Shown piece after piece: positions 4,073-53,167 of a stretch of DNA of 64,000 bases. The stretch comes from Halicephalobus mephisto (taxonomy: Eukaryota > Nematoda > Chromadorea > Rhabditida > Panagrolaimidae). Where the stretch lies: NCBI GenBank assembly GCA_009193035.1, contig SWDT01000211.1, forward strand, positions 434,001 to 498,000. Reading direction: 5' to 3'. The notes beneath the pieces are model-generated. The model searched no databases and had not been told where the DNA came from. It saw only the letters and a list, made by a program, of their open reading frames with translations. Every line of letters starts with the position of its first letter. Positions within the stretch are counted from its first letter, which is position 1. Both the position numbers and the translations under genes were made by a program.

Positions 4073-6450
4073 ATGGAGGCAAAAAAAATCGGCATAATCG
4101 GCTACGGACATCTTGGTGACTTTTTGTACTTTAATTAACAACATTAGAAATTCGTAGAAGCTTCTAGAATCTTCCGAAATCTATAAAATCTTTTAGAACT
4201 ATTTCCAATTTCTGAAAGCATTTTCGAAATCTTGTGGAAACTTAAAACTTTCTAGAGTCTGATGGAATTTTATGGAGCTTTTCAAGATCTCATAATAATT
4301 TCCGAAAATTCCTAAAATTTAATAAGATACTATCAAGTCTGAAAATTTTATAGTTTTCTGGGATGTTTCAAAATCTCTTGGAAATTTCTGGAGTCATAAA
4401 AATCATATAAAAGTTCTAGTATTCTCTAGAATTCCAGAGAAGTTTTCAGAACCCAATGGAAAGTTTGGAAATTTTCCACAATTGCATAGTGACTTTTTGA
4501 GTCTTCTAAGATCTTAGAAATTCTCGGAGTCTTCCAGAATCTAATGAAAAAATTTCAACCAAGATCCGAAATAACGAGTTATGGTATTCCTTAAAAATCC
4601 CAGGAATTCATGTCAAGATAGTTTTGTAATAATACTTATTTTTACTTTTTATGATATAAATACAATTTTAATATTAGTAAGAAACGATGAAAATAATCCC
4701 ATTCGCAGACCATGGTAAACTGCACGTATCCCCTTAGACTGCACGTTCTTTTGACTCCAATTTTTCCCACGTGAGAGCGAGTCAATTCTTCGTAGTAATT
4801 AGGGATTTCACATTGCAAATTCGTTTTATGTTCTTCTACAAAATGTAATCATAGATTTGATTAAAAGTAGTTGACGAGAGTCTTAACAAAAAAAAACAGT
4901 TGAGAGTAATTTATCCGGGGTTTTTCTACATGTGGGGATTTATTTTTTTCTCCATAAAATAGAATTCTGTAAAAGCTTCTAAAATCTCCCAGCATTCAAT
5001 AAAAGGTTTTGCAACCTTCCGAAATTTTATGGAAATTTTGAAAATTATCCAAAATCTAATTGAAGGTTTTAAAGCTTTCCTGGATATCGTGGAGATTTTT
5101 CGGAATCCAATATAGGATTTTCAAAATTTCAAGGTTCTTGTGGAATGTTTTATGACCCTCAGGATTTCGTAGAAATTTCTGAGTGATTTTAAAGCTCTGT
5201 AGCTTTTGGAATGCTATAAAATCCTATGGAAATTTCAAAAACCTGAGAAATTTCATAGAAAGTTCTAAATTTCTTCATTATCTTGTGAAGATATTTGGAA
5301 TATTTCAAAATCTAGTAGAAAATTAAAACAACATTTGAAGCTGAAGATTTTAGAATTACCTAAAAAACTTCACAGATTTGTATTGAGAGAATGTGATAAC
5401 TCTTCTTGAATTTTTTATCTATAAAATTATAATTTCATGGAAACTTTGAATTTTCCAGAGTTTTGAAAAGTTTTGAAATATTTCAAAATATCATAGAACT
5501 TTAAAACTATAAACTTCCCGGAACACTCCAGAAGCCGATAGAAACTTTAAGAATTGACATCTAAAAATTCAAATAGCTTCTAGAATATCTGGAAATTGAT
5601 GTGAAGATAACCTCTTAACAGCCTTTATTTTTAATTTTGCAGTAATGCGATATTAAATAAAATTTTGTTTTTTTCAGGAGAATTTCTGTCAGTAGAGTTG
5701 AGGAACAGGAAAGAATTCAAGGTAGAAAAAATTTGGAACAGAACTGAGATTGAAAAAGAAAACGTCTTGCCTTTGACGGACATTACTCCTGAAAATCTAC
5801 AGGGACTAGATCTGGTCATCGAGGTTGCTCATCCACAGGTCGTTGAGGACTATGGAGAACTCATCTTGGAACATACTAATCTACTTGTCGGGTCACCTAC
5901 CGCTCTTGCCAATGAAACTTTATTCAATGCCATAAAGGAGAAGTTGAAGAAAATCCCCGATCGTCGGCTATTTGTTCCTGCTGGTGCCTTCTGGGGTGGT
6001 GGTGATATCCAGAAAATGGCTGATTGCGGGACATTGAAGGGCTTGACGATAACAATGATAAAACACCCTAATTCCTTGAAAGTGCTGGGAGAACTGGAGG
6101 AACTTTGTCAAAGAGCTAAAAAGACGAACACTGCAATGGTTCTATATGATGGCCCAGTCAGGATGCTGTGTCCTTTGGCCCCCAACAATGTGAACACCAT
6201 GGCTGGGGCTGCAGTCGCGGCTCACAATCTCGGATTCGATAACACCCGAGCCAAGCTTATTGCTGATCCGAGTATGACCAATTGGCATATCGTGGAGGTC
6301 GAAGTGACCGGTCCCAATGGATTCACCGTGAAGACTCGTCGTGAGAATCCAGCTGCTCCGGGAGCCGTTACAGGAAGTGCTACTTACATGTCATTCCTTG
6401 CTAGTATCATCCAGTCATTTTACAAACCCCCAGGGATCAGTATCTGTTAA
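4073..6450 (+). CDS. aspartate dehydrogenase domain-containing protein (ASPDH)
   Basis: 271 aa in two exons, 4073-4115 and 5678-6450. Exon 1 encodes the start of a Rossmann NAD-binding fold, IGIIGYGHLG, split in the final glycine codon by a 1.56-kb intron full of degenerate repeats. Exon 2 continues FLSVELRNR, then DLVIEVAHPQVVEDYG, LVGSPTAL, the loop VPAGAFWGGGDIQK, CPLAPNNVNTMAGAAVAA and NPAAPGAVTGSATYMS, all typical of L-aspartate dehydrogenase/ASPDH proteins of about 270-280 aa. The family oxidises or deaminates L-aspartate to iminoaspartate with NAD(P); the animal role is uncertain. An AATAAA lies about 3970 and only 117 bp separate the strm-1 stop from this ATG, consistent with a downstream operon gene with trans-splicing near 4070. 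An earlier exon end is excluded because the glycine motif only joins correctly at 4115. Confidence 0.88.
4116..5677 (+). repeat. ASPDH intron filled with degenerate TCTAGAA-type dispersed repeat
   Basis: Almost the whole intron is short, diverged, AT-rich blocks built on TTCTAGAA, GGAAATTTT and AATCTTCC words. Three stretches (ending near 4675, 5430 and 5665) finish with related terminal sequence of the form GTCAAGATA...TTATTTTTA...ATATTAAAT. Related blocks occur at 600-975 and 8620-8965. The period is irregular, so I call it a degenerate dispersed repeat rather than a satellite. Confidence 0.55.
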
Positions 6451-6977
6451 TCTATTTTTAGAAGAAGCAAAATATAACAATAAATATTGACCCTAAAGTA
6501 CTATCTCTGTCGTTTCTAATGTGCGTGTTCATGGGTGTCTTCAGGAAGTATAGGAACGTGTCTATCTCTTCTAAATTTGGCAGTTGACTGGTTCCCTTTC
6601 ATCCGGAAGTCAAAAGACGGTTCAAACGAGGAGCTTTGTTAAATCTCTTTCGGACGAGTAAAGTACTTTTCCGAGATTTTCTCTCTGGGTCTTTTTTATG
6701 TGCAGAACTCCCAGACACATCCCAGTCTGCAGTCGTTTTTATCTCCACTAAGCCCGCATTTTGTCTCGTCCAGAAATAATTCAATTTCTCAGGGCAATAA
6801 GGTGAATAAAATGACAATGGCCTCCGGGTAACTCGCTTAAGAGACCAAAGGTTTTATTTTTTCTTTGCATTTTCAAAATTGAATTTAAATTCATTAAACC
6901 TAGTTTTATTTCTTTTTTCAATTTGGCTGCTAGATCTTCATTAGTAGAGACAGTAGTGTTTAATGAGGGCAAAATTC
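6451..6977. other. intergenic, no gene recognised
   Basis: 3' flank of the ASPDH gene (AATAAA at about 6479). Short open frames on the minus strand at 6599-6972 have no recognisable domain or splice structure. AT-rich sequence near 6850-6977 resembles a weak first unit of the following satellite. Confidence 0.4.
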
Positions 6978-7632
6978 GTACTCTGTCAAAAAACGGTTTT
7001 ATTTAATTTTGGAATATGAATTTAGAAACTCAATACCTCATGATGGACATTCCTCAAATTTGGGGACTTCCTCGTTCCAATCTTTGTTCGTACTGTGTCA
7101 AAAATGGTTTGCTTTAATTTTAGAATATGAATTTAGGAATTTAATACTTTACTATTAATGTTTTTTTCCAGTTAGAAACTTCTTCATTAAGATCTATACT
7201 TCATGATATCAGAAAAGATTTTATTTAATTCCAAAATATAAATATAGGAGCATGATAATTTTCGATTATTATTAATTTTTGTAGATTAAAGAATTCCTCA
7301 TTCATATTTATGTTTTGTACTCTGCCAAAAACACAGTTTTATTTGGTTTCAAAATATAAATTTAATACTTCTCGACTGGCATCCTTTTCCTCACACTGGA
7401 AACTTCCTTATTTGTATCCTATTTGTAGCATGTCAAAAAGACGATTTTATTAAATTTCGGAATATGAATTTAGAAACGTAATACTTTATGATTGACATTC
7501 TTTTCCTCAGATTATGGACTTCCTTATTTGTATCTGTACTTTGTACTATGTCAAGAATATGAATTTGGGCACTGAATACTTTAGTATTAACATGACGTTT
7601 CTCGAAATGGAGACCTCTCCATCCATATCCGT
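6978..7632 (+). repeat. diverged tandem satellite, about 113-bp units
   Basis: About six head-to-tail units start near 6978, 7090, 7203, 7317, 7426 and 7544. Shared words in order within each unit: TACT(C/G)TGTCAAAAA, GGTTTTATTTAATTT, GGAATATGAATTTAG, AATACTTTA, then TTTTCCTCA and ACTTCCTTATTTGTA. The last unit lacks part of its first third. Divergence between units is substantial. Confidence 0.7.
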
Positions 7633-26195: not shown

Positions 26196-26881
26196 CTCTT
26201 TTATTTGTTTTTCTAAGGACACCAATTATATTCCAAATATCCTGCTGATTAATTCCAAGTTCCGCACTTCATCTCTAAAAAATACGAATAATATTGTGGA
26301 ACTCAAAATGTCGAAGTACTATTCCGTAGACTTCTTGAATTCTTATTCAAATTACACAGGTGATGTCTAAAGTTAAAAATGAAAAATCTGGAGAAAATGA
26401 CTCCTTCCGAATTGTTGAGTTCTTCAAAGAACATGGATTCTGTCGATGAACACCTATTCAAAGATTTAATGAGTGAATCTTCTCCTATACTGTTCGAAAC
26501 TGTCTATAGAACTTAGAAAACATCTTGTACCAGAAACAGGAGATCATGGTGATGAAAGAGTTTCTTTTCTCCTCAAAAAATCTCAAAATAAAGAACTCAA
26601 GTCTGACGGCCTTGGAGCTTTCGTGTCTTCCGAGATCATCTTCAAACAATCTGGTGATGTTAAAATTGCAATTGAATGTCCTATGAGAACGAAGGATTCA
26701 GATTATCTACAAAATTCTTTATTAAATTAGAATAATATTACAATAATAAAAAGTAAGAGTTTCGAAATTAGTTATCATCTTCACCTTATTTAATTCTTGT
26801 TCTGTAAATACAGAAAGTTGATAACATGGAATTATTAACATTGTTTTTGATTTTTCAAATTCCTCCTATATTACAAGAAAT

Positions 26882-26930
26882 AGTGTTCAAAAAATTCGAA
26901 AGAATGCAATTTGTGAACACTATCCTTCCT
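26882..26930. repeat. palindromic block, copy 3
   Basis: ATAGTGTTCA near 26881 faces TGAACACTATC near 26912. The T to C change in the left arm is matched by an A to G change in the right arm, so the pairing is kept. Confidence 0.5.
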
Positions 26931-26979
26931 ATCTTTTGAATTCCTTGTAGTGCACAGTCCCAAAATACTCATAGTTTAC

Positions 26980-27670
26980 CAAATATTAGCGATCTTCCCC
27001 ATCGGCAGTCAGTCTGAAAAAAAAAATAATTCGGGAAATTTGTTTAGATGGTTCAGTGGTTAAAATTAAAACTTTTAAGCCGCTTAAACTGCCGAGGTTC
27101 GATTCCCGCAGGGCACAAGGATTTCAAATTGTCCCTTATGAGTAATAGAAATGGGATAATAGGAGAAGGGATAGGGTACTAGGAATGAAGCATAGGGTAA
27201 CAGAAGGCGAGGATGGGGTAGCAGAAATGGAGAATAGGGTAGTAGGTAGGGAGATTACTGTAACAAGAAAAAGAGTACTGTAATACGAAGATAGGATACT
27301 GTAACAGGCAAAATAGGTACGGTAATAGGCCAAGAAGTACGGTAATGAAAAGTAGGTATACTGTAACAGGGAAAAGGAGTACTGTATCAGGGAAAATAGG
27401 CCAAGGAGTACGGTAACAAAAAAAGGTATACTGTAACAGGGAAAAAAGTACTGTAATTAATAGGTAAAAATTAAAATGAAAAAATAGTGTTTTCTTCGCT
27501 TCTCTGACAGGAATTTCACTTTCTACTTTCTTTGATAGAAAAAGTGATGATTCCTCTCAGATTTGAAGAGCAAACTATGCATCATAGGGTAATCGGACCC
27601 ATAGAATCCGAATCTGAAGTCAGAATTGGGGGCTGACCTTCAAATATTGGAGGTTCTGAGTCCTGAATTC
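26980..27670 (+). mobile_element. tRNA-headed SINE-like element, copy A
   Basis: About 690 bp. Order: 5' leader CAAATATTAGCGATCTTCCC; tRNA-like head with box A TGGTTCAGTGG (27049-27059) and box B GGTTCGATTCC (27096-27106), about 37 bases apart; an internal minisatellite (27130-27475) of degenerate units around TACTGTAACAGGGAAAA; then a tail containing GACCCATAGAATCCGAATCT (27596-27615). All four parts recur in the same order, inverted, at 46498-47050. The head does not fold as a complete tRNA: the 3' acceptor strand AGGGCAC has no partner upstream. Confidence 0.7.
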
Positions 27671-27999
27671 TGAAGTTTCTGCTTTTATCAATGATGTCTG
27701 TCATTCGAAGGTTCAAAAATCAAATAATAACTTCTGAAATCATTCGGAAAGTACTAGATGAATATCTGAAAACTGTTGTTAGTGATATCAATCATCAGTG
27801 TTAATCTGATAAATATAGAATATGATGAAATTCTCCACTTAGTTAATGTCTAAGAAAGGAGCGACTCTTAATTCGACTCTCTCCTTTCTTAAAAAGGGAC
27901 AGAATATTTCAGAAATTAATCATATTGGAACTGTTCTGCAATCTCTCAGAGCAAATTAACGAGGCTTCCCCATTTGTTGCCCAATTGGTTCAACCATCT

Positions 28000-28014
28000 G
28001 AGTAACAAAAAAGA
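28000..28014 (-). terminator. Pol III T-run terminator of the 5S gene
   Basis: On the minus strand the 5S 3' end is followed by TCTTTTTTG; T6 is enough for RNA polymerase III termination. Confidence 0.6.
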
Positions 28015-28132
28015 GCTAGGAGCACTGGAGATTCCCAGGACGTCTCCGATCCAAGTACTAATCGAGCCCTAGGGCGTTTCACTGGCCAGATCGAACGGGA
28101 TGGCGTGCTTTCACCCTGGTTTGACCCCTAGC
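28015..28132 (-). rRNA. 5S ribosomal RNA gene, solitary copy
   Basis: 118 nt on the minus strand, close to the 119 nt of nematode 5S. Conserved 5S blocks are present: CACGCCATCCCGTTCGATCT, the internal control region TTAGTACTTGGATCGGAGAC, and CCTGGGAATC. The terminal helix closes: 5' GCTAGGGG pairs with 3' CTCCTAGC with one G-U pair. The RNA end is followed within two bases by a T6 run, a Pol III terminator. The loop A segment differs from the usual CCATA (it reads TCAAA), so this may be a diverged or pseudogene copy. It is a single copy here, not an array. Confidence 0.8.
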
Positions 28133-28936
28133 GAGAGGTGATTGTGTTCACTGCATTCTATTCCTTTTCTGCTTATCAGTCAGAAAATGTAATAAAATCT
28201 CTGAAATTTCTTATAATATTTCCACCGATTATAAATGAGAAGAAAATTATATCTCAAATCTGATCTTCAAAAATATTCTTTTTAAAAACATTCAATCAAA
28301 ATTTATTGTAAAAATGTTAATTCTTGTGCCCTCAAAGAAATCAAGTCTTGTTTATTTCTTCTATTCATTCTCACCGAACTCAATCAAACGTTACTCTCCG
28401 ATTAATAGTAAAGGGAAATTCAGCAACACAATCTATAAATTCATCTTTATCAAATTTATGAGGGCTGAATATCACATTGTGGATTTTCTCTGAGTCTTTT
28501 AGTGATCCTTGTAATCTTACTAAATTGAATTTACGCAATCATTCCAAATTTGGAACTTTCTCAACACCTGTTTTAAATCAACTGCGTTCTTGATACTGCT
28601 TGTGAAGTTTTATTTCATTTTTAAGAAATGACTTTTGGTTTTTTATACTCCGAAATTGGATATTGAAAAGTGTATTTTAAAATAAATAACTACAGTAGAA
28701 TTTTTTTACTTAATTGCCGACAGATTTCAAGTGTTTAAATTGAACTCTGATGATTCGATTCTCCAGCTCTGAAATTACATCCAGGTGAACTAAACGTGAG
28801 TAATAAGATAATCTAAGAATACAGTATTAAGACAGTGAAGGTTAGACGGATACAAAGTGAAAAAAGAGTTAAAGACACAAAACACAATTTAGACCATAGA
28901 TGATTATTTCCTAACTGATGCTTGAATGAATAATTC
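28133..28936. other. intergenic, nothing recognised
   Basis: AT-rich. No exon, repeat or RNA gene seen. It contains the 5' flank of the 5S gene and the 3' flank of the chemoreceptor gene. Confidence 0.4.
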
Positions 28937-34624: not shown

Positions 34625-42724
<8,100 letters not shown>

Positions 42725-45700: not shown

Positions 45701-46497
45701 GGAAATTTGTTACGTAAATCAACTCATTTTCTCCTGCTATTCTTGGTACAAACGTTTTTTGAGAAGATTAGACAAAATCGACTCCTTGAAATATTTGTAA
45801 TTCGAACTATTTGTATTGGTAATTCTAATAAGTGATGGATAAATAGTTCATTAATTACTAGTAGGTAAGTAACACTAGTTTTGATTTCCTTCACAAGATC
45901 ATCATGCATTATTCACTACTAATAGGTGTTTTTGGCAACTGTTATTCACTTGCTAAAGTTTCCAATAGTGCATTTTCTCTATTGAAAATTCTTTAAAAAT
46001 GCTTTTAAAAATTACAATTAATTAAATAAAAACTAGATACAGCGTTGGTGTTTCATGGTGTGCAATTTAGTTATCTTGTCCGTTGCACTCATCAAAATTG
46101 CTGAATTTTTAACACGCTTTTCATTTACTTGAGAATCTTCGAGAGTCTATGTAATATGATCATGAAAGTTTTTCAGTTTCTTTTCTTTAATGGTTTGAAT
46201 GACCTGAGTATTTTCTGCTTCCTTTGACTTCTTGAATAAATTCTTTATATCATTATTTTTAGCAGTTGTCATATTTCTAAATTAGTGCTCCTCCTACTTT
46301 ATTTGATTGAGAATTTCCTCTCGAAATCATATGACTGAATGTGAACGTAAAGAAATCTTGGTAAATGCTCTTCCAGTACTAAGACAAAAATAAATGCTGT
46401 AAAGTTTATAAACTTACTCTATTCACACACAGGAACCATACTGCAACATATATGTCCTTTCGTAAATGTTGGATGAGTAAATCGAATGGCATATAAC
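42725..46497. other. long intergenic region upstream of NALCN
   Basis: 3.8 kb to the SINE-like copy. No gene chain found. A GC-richer island at about 44220-44470 is open on both strands (plus GEAAFRKSLCDALW; minus EYGQRASHKLFRK) without known domains; it may be a promoter element or a first exon. AT-rich stretches and short frames elsewhere (43400-43900, 45100-45720) are not supported as genes. Confidence 0.4.
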
Positions 46498-47050
46498 GAT
46501 ATATGATTCAGAATCTCCGGAATTTGAATGACAACCATTAATTCTGACTTTAGATTCGGAATCTATGGGTCAAATTATTTTATCATTCATATTTTTTATC
46601 TTCAAATTCGAAGATAATCAGCGTTTTCTGTCCCAAAGAAAGTGTAAAACCGAGATAGAGAAGAAAAGAAAATACTATTTTCTACTCTAATTGTATACAT
46701 ATTAACTACAGTTTACTTCTTCTCTGCTACAGTACACCTTCTCCTTGTTTCAGTATCATTCCTTCCTAATACTTTATCTTTTTTTTATTACCTTATTTTT
46801 CCTTTCTGTTACTCTATTCTTATTTTCTACTACCTTATATTCTTTTGCTGTTACTCTATTCTTCCCCTCAACTATTGCAGTTCCATTACCTATTAAGGAC
46901 AATAGCAAAACTTTTTGTCCTCTCCACAGATCGAAATTCGGCACTTGAAGCGACTTAGTGGTTGCGATTTTAACCACTAAGCAAATATTCGAAACTCTTT
47001 ATTTTTTTAAATTAATACCGAGTGCCGGCGGGAACGTTGCTAATATTTGC
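46498..47050 (-). mobile_element. tRNA-headed SINE-like element, copy B (inverted)
   Basis: Reverse-complement counterpart of the element at 26980-27670, about 550 bp. On the minus strand: CAAATATTAGCAACGTTCCC leader (from 47050), box A GCTTAGTGGTTAAAAT, a degenerate box B GAATTTCGATCTG, a minisatellite region at about 46690-46890 with TAACAG-type units, and the tail GACCCATAGATTCCGAATCT (46551-46570). Tail sequence is nearly identical to copy A; the middle is more diverged and shorter. Confidence 0.65.
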
Positions 47051-49660: not shown

Positions 49661-52600
49661 GCCTAAAATAATCATATTGAGATAAAAGTCAAATACGAAC
49701 ATCAAAGAAAACCGCCGTTCAAATTGACAGATTGTGATCTGGAATGAAAACGGACAGTCATGACCGGAATCGGACAATAATCGAAGCGAAAACGCGTCTT
49801 TGCGGTTCCTAATCTGTGCCGTATTGGGAAAACCGAATTTGCCGTGCCTATTCCCTCGCTTAATTACCTTGAGAACAACAGATAATTAGGAGATTTTTGG
49901 ATCGGGAGTGGATTTATTGATGGAAATCTGTCTATGGAGGGATAAAAAAGAATTCAAAATTGGCATCATTCATAATGAGCTCCTCTTTGACATGAGATAA
50001 ATTAGCTCGCAGAGGAAACAAAACCGATGGGCACAAACAGTTTTCTGGTCACTGAGGTGGTGGTAATTCAATAAAGGCGAAAATCGGAAGAATATAAGGT
50101 CAGACGGAACACAAATCTATCATGGAAGAAATAGCAAAATGACAAAAAAGAGAAGGTCAAGTTTATGAATGTTATTTATAGCCCCGATAACTATGGCAAA
50201 AGTCAAACAAATAAGTTTCTCAAGAGGTTCTTGCAGACACTCAAGTCAGTGATCCAGGATTTCCCAAATTTGCCATCCAAGACACCTGGAGAGCAGCAAT
50301 TCGGTCAGAGAAACCCGAGTAAACATGGGAGAGGAGGATTAGGTAACCAATCCATATCGGCATTAGATCAGCTAACCTGATTTAGATCGCGGACAGTTCT
50401 GCCAAATATGCACACTGTACAATGAGAAATCGTTCCGTCATGATGCTTCTTTGGGAAAGACTAGTACCACCGAATACGCGGCACAAAGAGGCGTTCAAGA
50501 TATAAAAACAATATGAATGAAACACCACCGAATGACCATTAGCCTTTTGAAGAATACAATTTTCGTCGAATCAATGTTATTTATCGCCTCGAAATCAAAA
50601 TGTCAAATCTCTCTAGGAGAAATATAACACACTCAGTCAGTAAGCAAATTCGCATAATTAAGTGACAAGTGGCCTCGAGGCTCTTGAGATAACGCCATTC
50701 ATCTATCGGTGTCCTAAAATCAATAAAGATATTTCCATCAAAGGAGGTCGGCAATAAAACCAAAAGCCACTGTGAAAACTCCTCTCGATTTCGTTATCAC
50801 AAGCTCCTGCTCACAATCGACAACAACCAATCTCCAGGAAATCAGCAGCCAAGAAAAGAGACGTTTGTCCTGCAAGTACAATCGGCACCAAGGTGCTGTA
50901 ATACCGGCGCCAACAAGCTTATCAACGTTAGAAATCGACTCAAAGAACCAAAATGACCAATTCTAGCCAAAATTTAAATTTCATATAAGAAGACTTGTTT
51001 GCGAAAATTGAATGAGTGACTCGGACTCTGCTACTGTCCTCATTCATCCACGAAACAAGACAAACTCGGTTTCATAAACTATTTTGGAAATTGTGAATTG
51101 CAAATGGATTCGCAAAGTATGCCGAGAGATTGAACATGGAACAAGTGACAGGGGAAACAATGCAGGGATCGCCAAGAAGGGTCGTTATTATCCACACAAG
51201 CCCGTGTTATTCGGGGTCATGACAAAAGAATTGCATAGAAAGGCAGATGTCTTGGACCACGGATCGGAAACAATTCAAAAGTCGTCTTCAAGTACGGGGA
51301 ATAAATCTCTTCAACATCTCAAAGACCTTCATGTGACGGTCATCATAAACGCAACTTGGGCAGATGTTAAAGTTATAAAACTGATCACCTTAAGAAAACA
51401 GTTTTCATTCAAAACATGTCCGTTTTACCAATCACGAAAAGATTCGTGCGATTCCCAGCTGGTGCCACTGTAGTCCTCTCGGGACTTCGGCACCTCTTTG
51501 AAGCCCGTTTTTCCATTTAAGGATTACTATTTTTTGACAGAAGACCGTATTTTATGATGGACTCTGAATGAAATTCGGAAAAACAATCCTAAAATTGAGA
51601 ATTCGGTTTTTAAGAAACCGGCTTCCGTTCAACTCAAATCGGTAATGGAAATGACGGTTTTGGAATCGAAACATCTGCGCAAGACCAAGTTTATTTCTTT
51701 TGGCCGCTTTTGGAATTGATCCAGATGACTCCAATCAAAAAATATTGAAAGAAAGACTGATATTTCCGGTGAAAGACCTGGTGTCACTAAGTTGCGCCTA
51801 CGTTTCTTGTGGTATTTCAGAGAGATAAGCGACCACCGCATCTGATGAAACTCAAGAAAGGCCATAAAAAAGATAATGCTAATTGTCACCAACTGAGAAA
51901 ACCAGTTACCAACACAGTGGGTGATCCGATGCAAATTCTTCAATAGCCAATTTGAGGAAGATAAACATTCTCAAGGCTGAAATAAAAAATAAAAACAAAA
52001 ACTCTAAAATTCGTTGCATTCGTAAATGACCAGTGGTCATCTAGGACCTTCCTGTCATGCATGCACAAGAATTCCAATTCCATTACTGAATTTCGAGGAT
52101 GAAAATATGCGGAAAGCTACTATAATCGAGGATAAAGGAACACAACAAAGCCTCCAATAAACGCGCATCCGACCGCTTTAATTGGAGTTGAATGCATTGA
52201 AAGCAACCCGGTCAGCTCGAATAATTTAATCCAATCTCGAGAATGAATGACCACAATGGAAATACCGGAAGTCCTGTCGCCTCAAGTCTTCCTCATTAAT
52301 TTTTCCGGCCCAAAAAGAAAACAAAAATTTACATAGGTTTACGAAACGGAGAGGTTGAAAAACGGCAGTAAAGCAGGTCGAGGATATAGCCGATATTGCT
52401 GCCAGTCCGTGCTACCTGACAGTTGCCATTCCGCTGGACCGAGAAGTAATGTGCTCCCATTGACGCCGAGTGAACACCCATTTTATAAACAATCAGGGAT
52501 TCGACCATGCAAAACACCAAGAAGTATAACAATTTTTAAATATCCAGAACCCCCAATGATGTGCATTACAGTCCTAAATGTTGTATCTTTCGATTATAAC

Positions 52601-53167
52601 TTGCTTCCAAATTGTCACACTAAAATTTCATTTTGTGATTAACTACAGCTCTATAAGATCTATCATACAAACTCTTTTATCCCTCCAAATTTTCTATTTC
52701 GGAAGTTATGATGCAAAATATAGACTTCTAGTAAAAATTTGGAAATTTGTGCTACACATAACTCACTTCTGGAGCCCTTTAGAAAGATTCTGGTGACTTC
52801 TCCTGAACGAACATACTGAGATCTAAGGTTTCAATTATATCATTCTAGTTATCTTTTGATTTCTTATCAATTTTTAAAGTCAGCGTCGGGGAAAATCATT
52901 CTTTTTTCCAACTTCATGCTTTCAGAAGCTGGATATTGAATGCGAAATAGTTCCAGAAAACAAAATTCTAATGGGTCTCTAGATCTATCAAAGTAAAAAT
53001 ATATATGCCTATAATTAGCCACAAAGTGAGATCTTAGTGCGATAAATTAGGAGCGAGTTATAATCGAAAGGTACAATATTTAGAACCACACTATAAAACG
53101 TAAAAATCATCGATGTGATTTTTTTCAAAAACAAATCCAAACCAAAGGAATTAAATTAAAAATACAA
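49661..53167. other. long intergenic region upstream of dystroglycan
   Basis: 3.5 kb. No supported exon chain, RNA gene or clear repeat. Short plus-strand frames (50165-50380, 50772-50966, 51084-51473) and minus-strand frames are compositionally unremarkable. Regulatory DNA of dystroglycan and the TraB gene's 3' UTR are expected here. Confidence 0.4.

What the first reader, a model, noticed from the sequence alone, without database searches (positions are those of the whole stretch)
26980..27670. tRNA-headed SINE-like family with internal minisatellite, copies at 27 kb and 47 kb
Two inverted copies share four parts in the same order: a CAAATATTAGC leader, a tRNA-like head with box A and box B spacing, an internal TACTGTAACAGG-type minisatellite, and a near-identical tail (GACCCATAGA(A/T)TCCGAATCT). 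Coordinates of the second copy are 46498-47050. Head and tail conservation with a fast-changing middle is what a short retroposon transcribed by Pol III would look like. I know of no named family with this layout, which I cannot verify.
Basis: partly seen in the sequence, partly recalled or inferred. Interest (0 to 1): 0.75.

Follow-up and report, generated by a model that had tools for sequence, protein, structure and literature searches.

The report
tRNA-like cassette inside TTAA DNA transposons
Two scattered repeats in a roundworm genome that look like tRNA-headed retroposons are better explained as old, non-coding cut-and-paste (piggyBac-type) DNA transposons that picked up a tRNA-like piece and a short tandem repeat.

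Summary
The window (inferred Halicephalobus mephisto) carries two inverted copies with leader, tRNA-like head, minisatellite and tail in the same order. A head pattern finds 27 places in the 59.9 Mb assembly and 0 in its reversed control; all 27 have the tail downstream. The SINE reading does not hold. Six head-bearing copies are flanked by inverted repeats (36-103 bp by BLAST) with consensus start TTAACACTTGGA; two have TTAA exactly at both ends. Elements without the head share these ends, and one inverted pair of the end pattern encloses broken piggyBac transposase matches (PF13843). The tail pattern occurs 225 times and also lies in elements with different TTAA ends. The head has Pol III A and B boxes at tRNA-like spacing, but no tRNA fold scores and the boxes are no better conserved than the DNA between them. 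Best reading: a composite, non-autonomous piggyBac-type element (MITE) with a tRNA-derived passenger. Copy 1 and eight other young copies sit in duplicated blocks with a 5S rRNA gene. No empty site was found. Closest in kind: coral CMITEs. Interest is modest.

The parts
26459..28353 (+). Larger dispersed block holding copy 1 and a 5S rRNA gene; L002 matches all of it (88%), and L003, L004, L005, L010, L011, L012 and L013 match its right part into the 5S gene
26978..27014 (+). Copy 1 leader (CAAATATTAGC...); no terminal inverted repeat detected near this copy
27015..27667 (+). Copy 1 core, the stretch shared by copies with different flanks
27049..27059 (+). A-box-like TGGTTCAGTGG
   Evidence: joint A+B test
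27096..27106 (+). Exact B box GGTTCGATTCC
27171..27485 (+). Purine-rich minisatellite region, mainly ~21 bp units (TACTGTAACAGG type)
27490..27493 (+). First TTTT after the B box, a possible Pol III stop, before the tail
27560..27662 (+). Copy 1 tail; the tail pattern occurs 225 times in the genome at <=3 mismatches
28014..28132 (-). 5S rRNA gene inside the duplicated block
   Evidence: Rfam RF00001, 102.3 bits
46498..47050 (-). Copy 2, older (64-69% identical to copy 1)
46868..47012 (-). Copy 2 head region; A box core kept, B box degenerate
46505..46606 (-). Copy 2 tail
46422..46521 (-). Copy 2 3' terminal inverted repeat (outer end TTCACACACAGG); no matching 5' end was detected for this copy

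Best explanation
The two copies are relics of a composite non-autonomous DNA transposon family of piggyBac type. The ancestral element had ~100 bp terminal inverted repeats beginning TTAACACTTGGA and was presumably cut and pasted at TTAA sites by a piggyBac transposase supplied in trans (inferred). Inside it carried a passenger cassette: a tRNA-derived piece with Pol III A and B boxes, a purine-rich ~20 bp minisatellite that grows and shrinks, and a tail module that also occurs in other TTAA-ended elements. Old copies, such as the one at 47 kb, moved by transposition (inferred). Many younger ones, including the 27 kb copy, spread by duplication of larger blocks that hold a 5S rRNA gene. Shown: inverted repeats, TTAA at part of the ends, co-occurrence of head and tail, headless elements with the same ends, and, by coordinates, one pair of such ends around broken piggyBac transposase matches. 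Inferred: transposase dependence, tRNA origin of the head, no present function.
For: Inverted repeats of 85, 103, 53, 54 and 36 bp flank the core in L033, L036, L037, L038 and L021, and of 54 bp in L016. TTAA is exact at 11 of the 24 ends listed, and at both ends in 2 of 6 two-ended head-bearing copies (L016, L036); flanks differ between the loci listed. Headless elements L089, L092 and L093 share the end, their homology starting at TTAACAC. The TIR pattern gives 114 genome hits against 9 in the reversed control. The inverted pair C266:184733(+)/188024(-), two identical 26-mers, encloses PF13843 matches at C266:185874-186705(-). The genome has 37 PF13843 matches, five with open frames above 500 aa and no stop. 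The C221 element ends TTTAACACGTTGACGAC on both sides, and the same motif follows the C267 ORF. 27 of 27 heads have the tail. Copy 1 and 8 others of the 17 loci L001-L017 share the 3' flank reaching the 5S gene.
Against: Copy 1 has no detectable terminal inverted repeats, and copy 2 only the 3' one, so their membership rests on homology. One search left out 17 of the 34 ends aligned; 3 of these 17 (one shared flank) read TTAA and 14 do not, mostly ends inside duplicated blocks. Overall TTAA is exact at 14 of 41 ends. No empty site: the joined flanks of L016 match only themselves; those of L036 were tested only against the fetched loci. The C266 transposase matches are broken and that DNA could not be fetched. 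The two long piggyBac elements whose ends I read share only about TTAACAC with this family. TTAA cannot be told from a conserved terminal motif without an empty site.
Confidence: 0.72

Rival explanations
1. A tRNA-derived SINE: Pol III transcript from the head, retroposed by a resident LINE that recognises the tail.
For: Exact A and B boxes at tRNA-like spacing in copy 1. The heads' 20-mer matches TGGTCTAGTGGTTAGGATTT, a tRNA-Glu-type D arm by recall, at 12-16 of 20 in 11 rows. All 27 heads have the tail.
Against: The head is internal, ~100-650 bp from a terminal inverted repeat, in the copies where one is found. In 21 of 26 copies scanned the first TTTT after the B box lies 84-119 bp before the tail, and in 4 more an earlier TTTT is seen, so a Pol III transcript would usually stop before the tail. 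The tail occurs far more often than the head (225 against 27) and lies in other TTAA-ended elements. No tRNA match at E<=10 in copy 1 or L036.
Confidence: 0.1
2. A SINE inserted once into a piggyBac-type MITE, and the composite then amplified as a DNA transposon. This is a special case of the best explanation (origin of the head), so the odds overlap.
For: Explains both the tRNA-like head and the inverted repeats.
Against: No free-standing SINE with this head is seen: all 27 pattern hits have the family's tail. Copies diverged beyond 3 mismatches would be missed.
Confidence: 0.15
3. A functional Pol III non-coding RNA gene family (head promoter, purine-rich RNA, TTTT stop), with the inverted repeats incidental.
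For: A-B spacing is constant in 11 of 11 aligned rows. Mean pairwise identity is 0.78 in the head, 0.73 in the tail, 0.68 in the 5' and 0.57 in the 3' repeat, though over different sets of copies. An imperfect hairpin is predicted in the head.
Against: A and B boxes (0.844 each) are less conserved than the DNA between them (0.881) in 7 rows. The hairpin's covariation measures are reached by 52-171 of 500 shuffles. Older copies have broken B boxes.
Confidence: 0.06
4. Only segmental duplication of 5S-bearing blocks; no transposition of the element at all.
For: Nine of 17 young loci, copy 1 included, share the flank reaching the 5S gene; some copies lie near contig ends.
Against: Older copies have unrelated flanks beyond the ends, and headless relatives share the same ends.
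Confidence: 0.05

Closest known systems
CMITE elements of Acropora corals (Wang et al. 2010, PMC2872659; abstract and sections 10 and 14 read)
   Same: TTAA-flanked MITEs linked to piggyBac-like transposons. An internal region is shared between families with different TIRs and is more conserved than the TIRs. Tandem arrays occur.
   Different: CMITEs are ~100 bp with 13-14 bp TIRs, mostly starting CCCT. Here two complete elements are 0.61 and 1.47 kb with ~100 bp repeats starting CAC, and carry a tRNA-like head and a minisatellite.
mPok1/mPok2, MITEs of the Pokey piggyBac family in Daphnia (PMC4912750; passages read)
   Same: piggyBac MITEs averaging 760 bp; some copies sit in ribosomal DNA.
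   Different: mPok can insert at a fixed 28S site and has 12-16 bp TIRs. Here a 5S gene merely lies in the same duplicated block. The passages read mention no tRNA-like head.
piggyBat of Myotis lucifugus (PMC11707139 and PMC8086355; passages read)
   Same: Inverted ends next to TTAA. From memory its end reads CACTTGG, like this family; I did not see those letters in any call.
   Different: Codes its own transposase and has simple 15 bp TIRs; here non-coding with ~100 bp repeats.
tRNA-derived SINEs (recalled)
   Same: A and B boxes at tRNA-like spacing, non-coding, dispersed.
   Different: Here the head is internal, the ends are inverted repeats starting TTAA, and the tail is shared with other TTAA-ended elements.

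Membership tests
tRNA-derived SINE | Pol III promoter at the 5' end of the mobile unit | tested here: not met
   Where a 5' inverted repeat is found the head lies ~100-650 bp inside it
tRNA-derived SINE | Head derived from a tRNA | tested here: inconclusive
   A/B boxes at tRNA-like spacing; 12-16 of 20 to a D-arm-like 20-mer. No Rfam tRNA match at E<=10. Best scores of three heads against 40 fetched tRNAs are 14, 12 and 15, with 95% shuffle values 13, 13 and 14
tRNA-derived SINE | Variable-length target-site duplication | tested here: not met
   In the two copies with both ends intact the boundary is TTAA (L016, L036); other copies were not tested for longer duplications at the head and tail
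tRNA-derived SINE | 3' end shared with a resident LINE, or A-rich tail | not tested
   No LINE search was made
piggyBac-type MITE | Terminal inverted repeats | tested here: met
   Six head-bearing copies; not found at copy 1, 3' end only at copy 2
piggyBac-type MITE | TTAA target duplication | tested here: inconclusive
   TTAA at both ends in 2 of 6 two-ended copies; exact at 14 of 41 ends in all; no empty site found
piggyBac-type MITE | Ends shared with an element coding a piggyBac transposase | tested here: inconclusive
   Inverted pair of the end pattern around broken PF13843 matches at C266, by coordinates only; the two piggyBac elements whose ends were read share only about TTAACAC
piggyBac-type MITE | No transposase of its own | tested here: met
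   Longest stop-to-stop frames 125, 82, 183 and 91 aa in four copies; no domain search was run on them
piggyBac-type MITE | Mobilised by the transposase | not testable with these tools
   Needs a transposition assay

The most novel reading that the evidence does not exclude
A DNA transposon lineage captured a Pol III promoter and carries a transcribed passenger RNA (tRNA-like head plus a purine-rich repeat RNA, stopping at the TTTT before the tail) that still influences its spread or its host.
Probability: 0.07. Interest if true: 0.6.

Novelty: new variant of a known kind. Interest (0 to 1): 0.32.

Why it matters
In H. mephisto 21.1% of the genome was masked as interspersed repeats, 87.3% of them unknown to RepeatMasker (PMC6872716, passages). 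This gives anatomy and boundaries to one family. It shows how a MITE can hold Pol III boxes and so be mistaken for a SINE, and it suggests that the coral pattern, internal modules shared between TTAA-ended families with different ends, also occurs in a nematode.

Tried and rejected
SINE: rejected as the mobilising mechanism, on boundaries. tRNA gene: ARAGORN finds none in the window, and Rfam shows no tRNA in the window at gathering scores or in copy 1 and L036 at E<=10. Conserved RNA hairpin: seen by folding, but covariation is within shuffles. Tail as part of an autonomous element: a 2.58 kb headless element in L046, with identical TTAAGAG... ends and the tail motif near both, has no frame above 95 aa inside. 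tRNA-Glu as parent: an exact two-arm pattern gives 0 matches; the one-arm pattern gives nine places at one mismatch, letters shown for three, with two control hits at <=3 mismatches. None of the nine is in the capped tRNA list, and the fetched Gly tRNA L062 matches the same 20-mer at 15 of 20, so Glu is only a lead. Sex-chromosome element: heads are over-represented on C55 (7; 1.1 expected), C146 (4; 0.3) and C99 (3; 0.1), but no chromosome assignment is held and block duplication inflates the counts. Covariance models R1-R3 were built and could not be used on this genome. Literature: (nematode, SINE, tRNA-derived, MITE, minisatellite) 0 papers; (4 of 5 MITE and Pol III terms) 2 papers, seen in the listing only; led to the papers cited. 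I found no print record of this family in those five searches; no wider claim is made.

Full report
Identity of the source. The window is C146:434001-498000 of a 59.9 Mb, 331-contig assembly. A window-encoded peptidase is 95% identical over 97% to Halicephalobus sp. NKZ332. Contig C55 is 2,546,343 bases, matching the longest scaffold (2,546 kb) reported for Halicephalobus mephisto (PMC6872716, passages). I take it to be H. mephisto. Against this stand small differences: the paper gives 61.4 Mb in 880 scaffolds and 32.1% GC, and this window has 38.1% GC; the held assembly may be a subset.

The observation. Copy 1 (26978-27667, +) and copy 2 (46498-47050, -) are 64-69% identical over most of their length and share leader, head, minisatellite and tail in order. 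Copy 1's minisatellite has ~21 bp units; a cleaner array, ten 20-bp units at 94%, is in L021. Copy 1 has the only exact B box of the window, with an A box at tRNA-like distance; simulated windows average 0.05 B boxes and none of 60 has both.

The family. A DNA search with copy 1 returned 53 matching pieces (40 of 41 candidates scored). The head pattern at <=3 mismatches finds 27 places, 0 in the reversed control. The tail pattern finds 225, 0 in the control; about 100 of the 225 places are listed. For 23 of 27 heads a listed tail lies 152-667 bp downstream on the same strand. The other four are shown otherwise: C99:224538 and C99:168578, C55:1237616, C55:250434. So each head found has the tail, while by the counts roughly nine in ten tails have no head. 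Some headless tails are probably shortened copies of this same family (L022, L032 and L034 have the 5' repeat and the tail but no head hit).

The boundaries. Older copies on C55 and C17 were aligned with copy 2. Their outer parts are inverted repeats: 85, 103, 53, 54 and 36 bp in L033, L036, L037, L038 and L021, 54 bp in L016. No such pair was reported for L035, L020 or either window copy. Nineteen ends were aligned; the outer consensus is TTAACACTTGGA. Of the 24 ends listed, 11 are exactly TTAA; two of the 24 (L094, L090_3rc) were badly anchored. One search left out 17 of the 34 ends aligned; of those, three (L006, L007, L009, one shared flank) read TTAA and 14 do not, 12 of them 5' ends of young copies or their shortened relatives with near-identical sequence. 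In all, 14 of 41 ends. L016 (1.47 kb) and L036 (0.61 kb) have TTAA on both sides. The joined flanks of L016 find only themselves in the genome, so there is no paralogous empty site; common words are skipped by that search. L036's joined flanks were compared only with the fetched loci and gave no empty site.

Relatives without the head. A search with one 5' end gave 15 places. Six places without a head hit were fetched. L089, L092 and L093 begin at TTAACAC, share 116-338 bp of the 5' module with one another, and have different outer flanks. L090 and L091 share the module with decayed ends (TTCA, TTAG); L094 shares it without a clear end. The end pattern finds 114 places, 9 in the reversed control.

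Link to piggyBac. The genome has 37 matches to PF13843, five in frames above 500 aa without a stop. The C221 element ends, and one end of C267, read TTTAACACGTTGACGAC: the same TTAACAC start, but a different continuation, so these two do not share the family's full ends. One inverted pair of the family's end pattern, C266:184733/188024, encloses broken PF13843 matches; I could not read that DNA. TTAA insertion is characteristic of piggyBac elements (PMC8086355 and PMC10813416, passages); CACTA is among the four end motifs named in the latter.

The tail module. Seven loci with headless tails were tested for a second kind of end, TTAAGAGCGATTCTACGTAACTTT. L042 and L046 have it at both sides starting TTAA; L043 has a TTAA end and a decayed TCAA one; L047 has one; L044 (a tandem array), L045 and L048 have none. 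So the tail module is shared with at least one other TTAA-ended kind of element with different ends. Coral CMITEs show the same pattern (PMC2872659, sections 10 and 14).

The head. The heads' 20-mer matches TGGTCTAGTGGTTAGGATTT at 16, 16, 16, 16, 15, 15, 14, 13, 12, 12 and 12 of 20 in 11 rows; 1 of 2000 shuffles of the L021 head reaches 16. That 20-mer is a tRNA-Glu D arm by my recall; it or a like one occurs nine times in the genome at one mismatch from the recalled pattern. Whole heads score 14, 12 and 15 against the best of 40 fetched tRNAs, with 95% shuffle values of 13, 13 and 14; the 40 lack several isotypes, Glu among them. No Rfam tRNA match at E<=10 in copy 1 or L036. A tRNA origin is likely, the parent is open. 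A-B spacing is constant in 11 of 11 rows, but the boxes (0.844 each) are less conserved than the DNA between them (0.881) in 7 rows. A hairpin folds but its covariation is within shuffles. In 21 of 26 copies scanned the first TTTT after the B box falls 84-119 bp before the tail; L012 has none before the tail, and L035, L039, L020 and c2 have an earlier one. The script mis-placed the B box in c2 and L038 and found no A box in L020. No chance test was made for this.

Young copies and 5S. Copy 1 sits in a block, 26459-28353, with a 5S rRNA gene at 28014-28132. Of the 17 loci L001-L017, copy 1 and eight others share the 3' side into the 5S gene (L002, L003, L004, L005, L010, L011, L012 through it, L013 to 28116). 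Others have another 3' flank, and two kinds of 5' flank occur in combination. At least 47 5S genes are dispersed in the genome, a capped list in which the window's own gene does not appear, so the neighbourhood looks incidental. Block duplication and exchange, rather than transposition, best explain these copies.

Conclusion. What it works like: a non-autonomous cut-and-paste element with a captured, tRNA-derived passenger. Membership in the piggyBac group: inverted repeats are met; TTAA duplication and ends shared with a transposase-coding element are suggestive but inconclusive; mobilisation is untested. It is not filed as a SINE, because a promoter at a free 5' end and SINE-type target duplications were tested and not met.

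Noticed in passing
window 39405-40308: A ~900 bp stretch that matches its own reverse complement at 72% identity (large palindrome or foldback element). A weaker one at 52571-53086.
   Followed up: no
window 28014-28132: 5S rRNA gene on the minus strand; 5S genes are dispersed over many contigs (47 listed, capped), some in pairs ~280 bp apart.
   Followed up: partly
L046:2613-5190 (C174): A 2.58 kb element with identical TTAAGAGCGATTCTACGTAACTTTGG ends and the tail motif near both ends, without a long ORF.
   Followed up: partly
C55:632769-634767, C76:27561-29557, C85:85181-87175, C190:106284-108277, C12:6633-8629: Five inverted pairs of a closely similar end (TTAACACTCGGAGGCCCG type) at almost equal length, 1,994-1,999 bp: perhaps a young, uniform non-autonomous family.
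   Followed up: no
C55, C146, C99: 14 of 27 heads lie on three contigs that make up about 6% of the assembly; duplicated blocks inflate this.
   Followed up: partly
L044:4554-5096 (C106): Tail motif five times in a row with a 129 bp period.
   Followed up: no
window 6975-7629 and 4158-5677: Local tandem or dispersed repeats found by self-BLAST.
   Followed up: no
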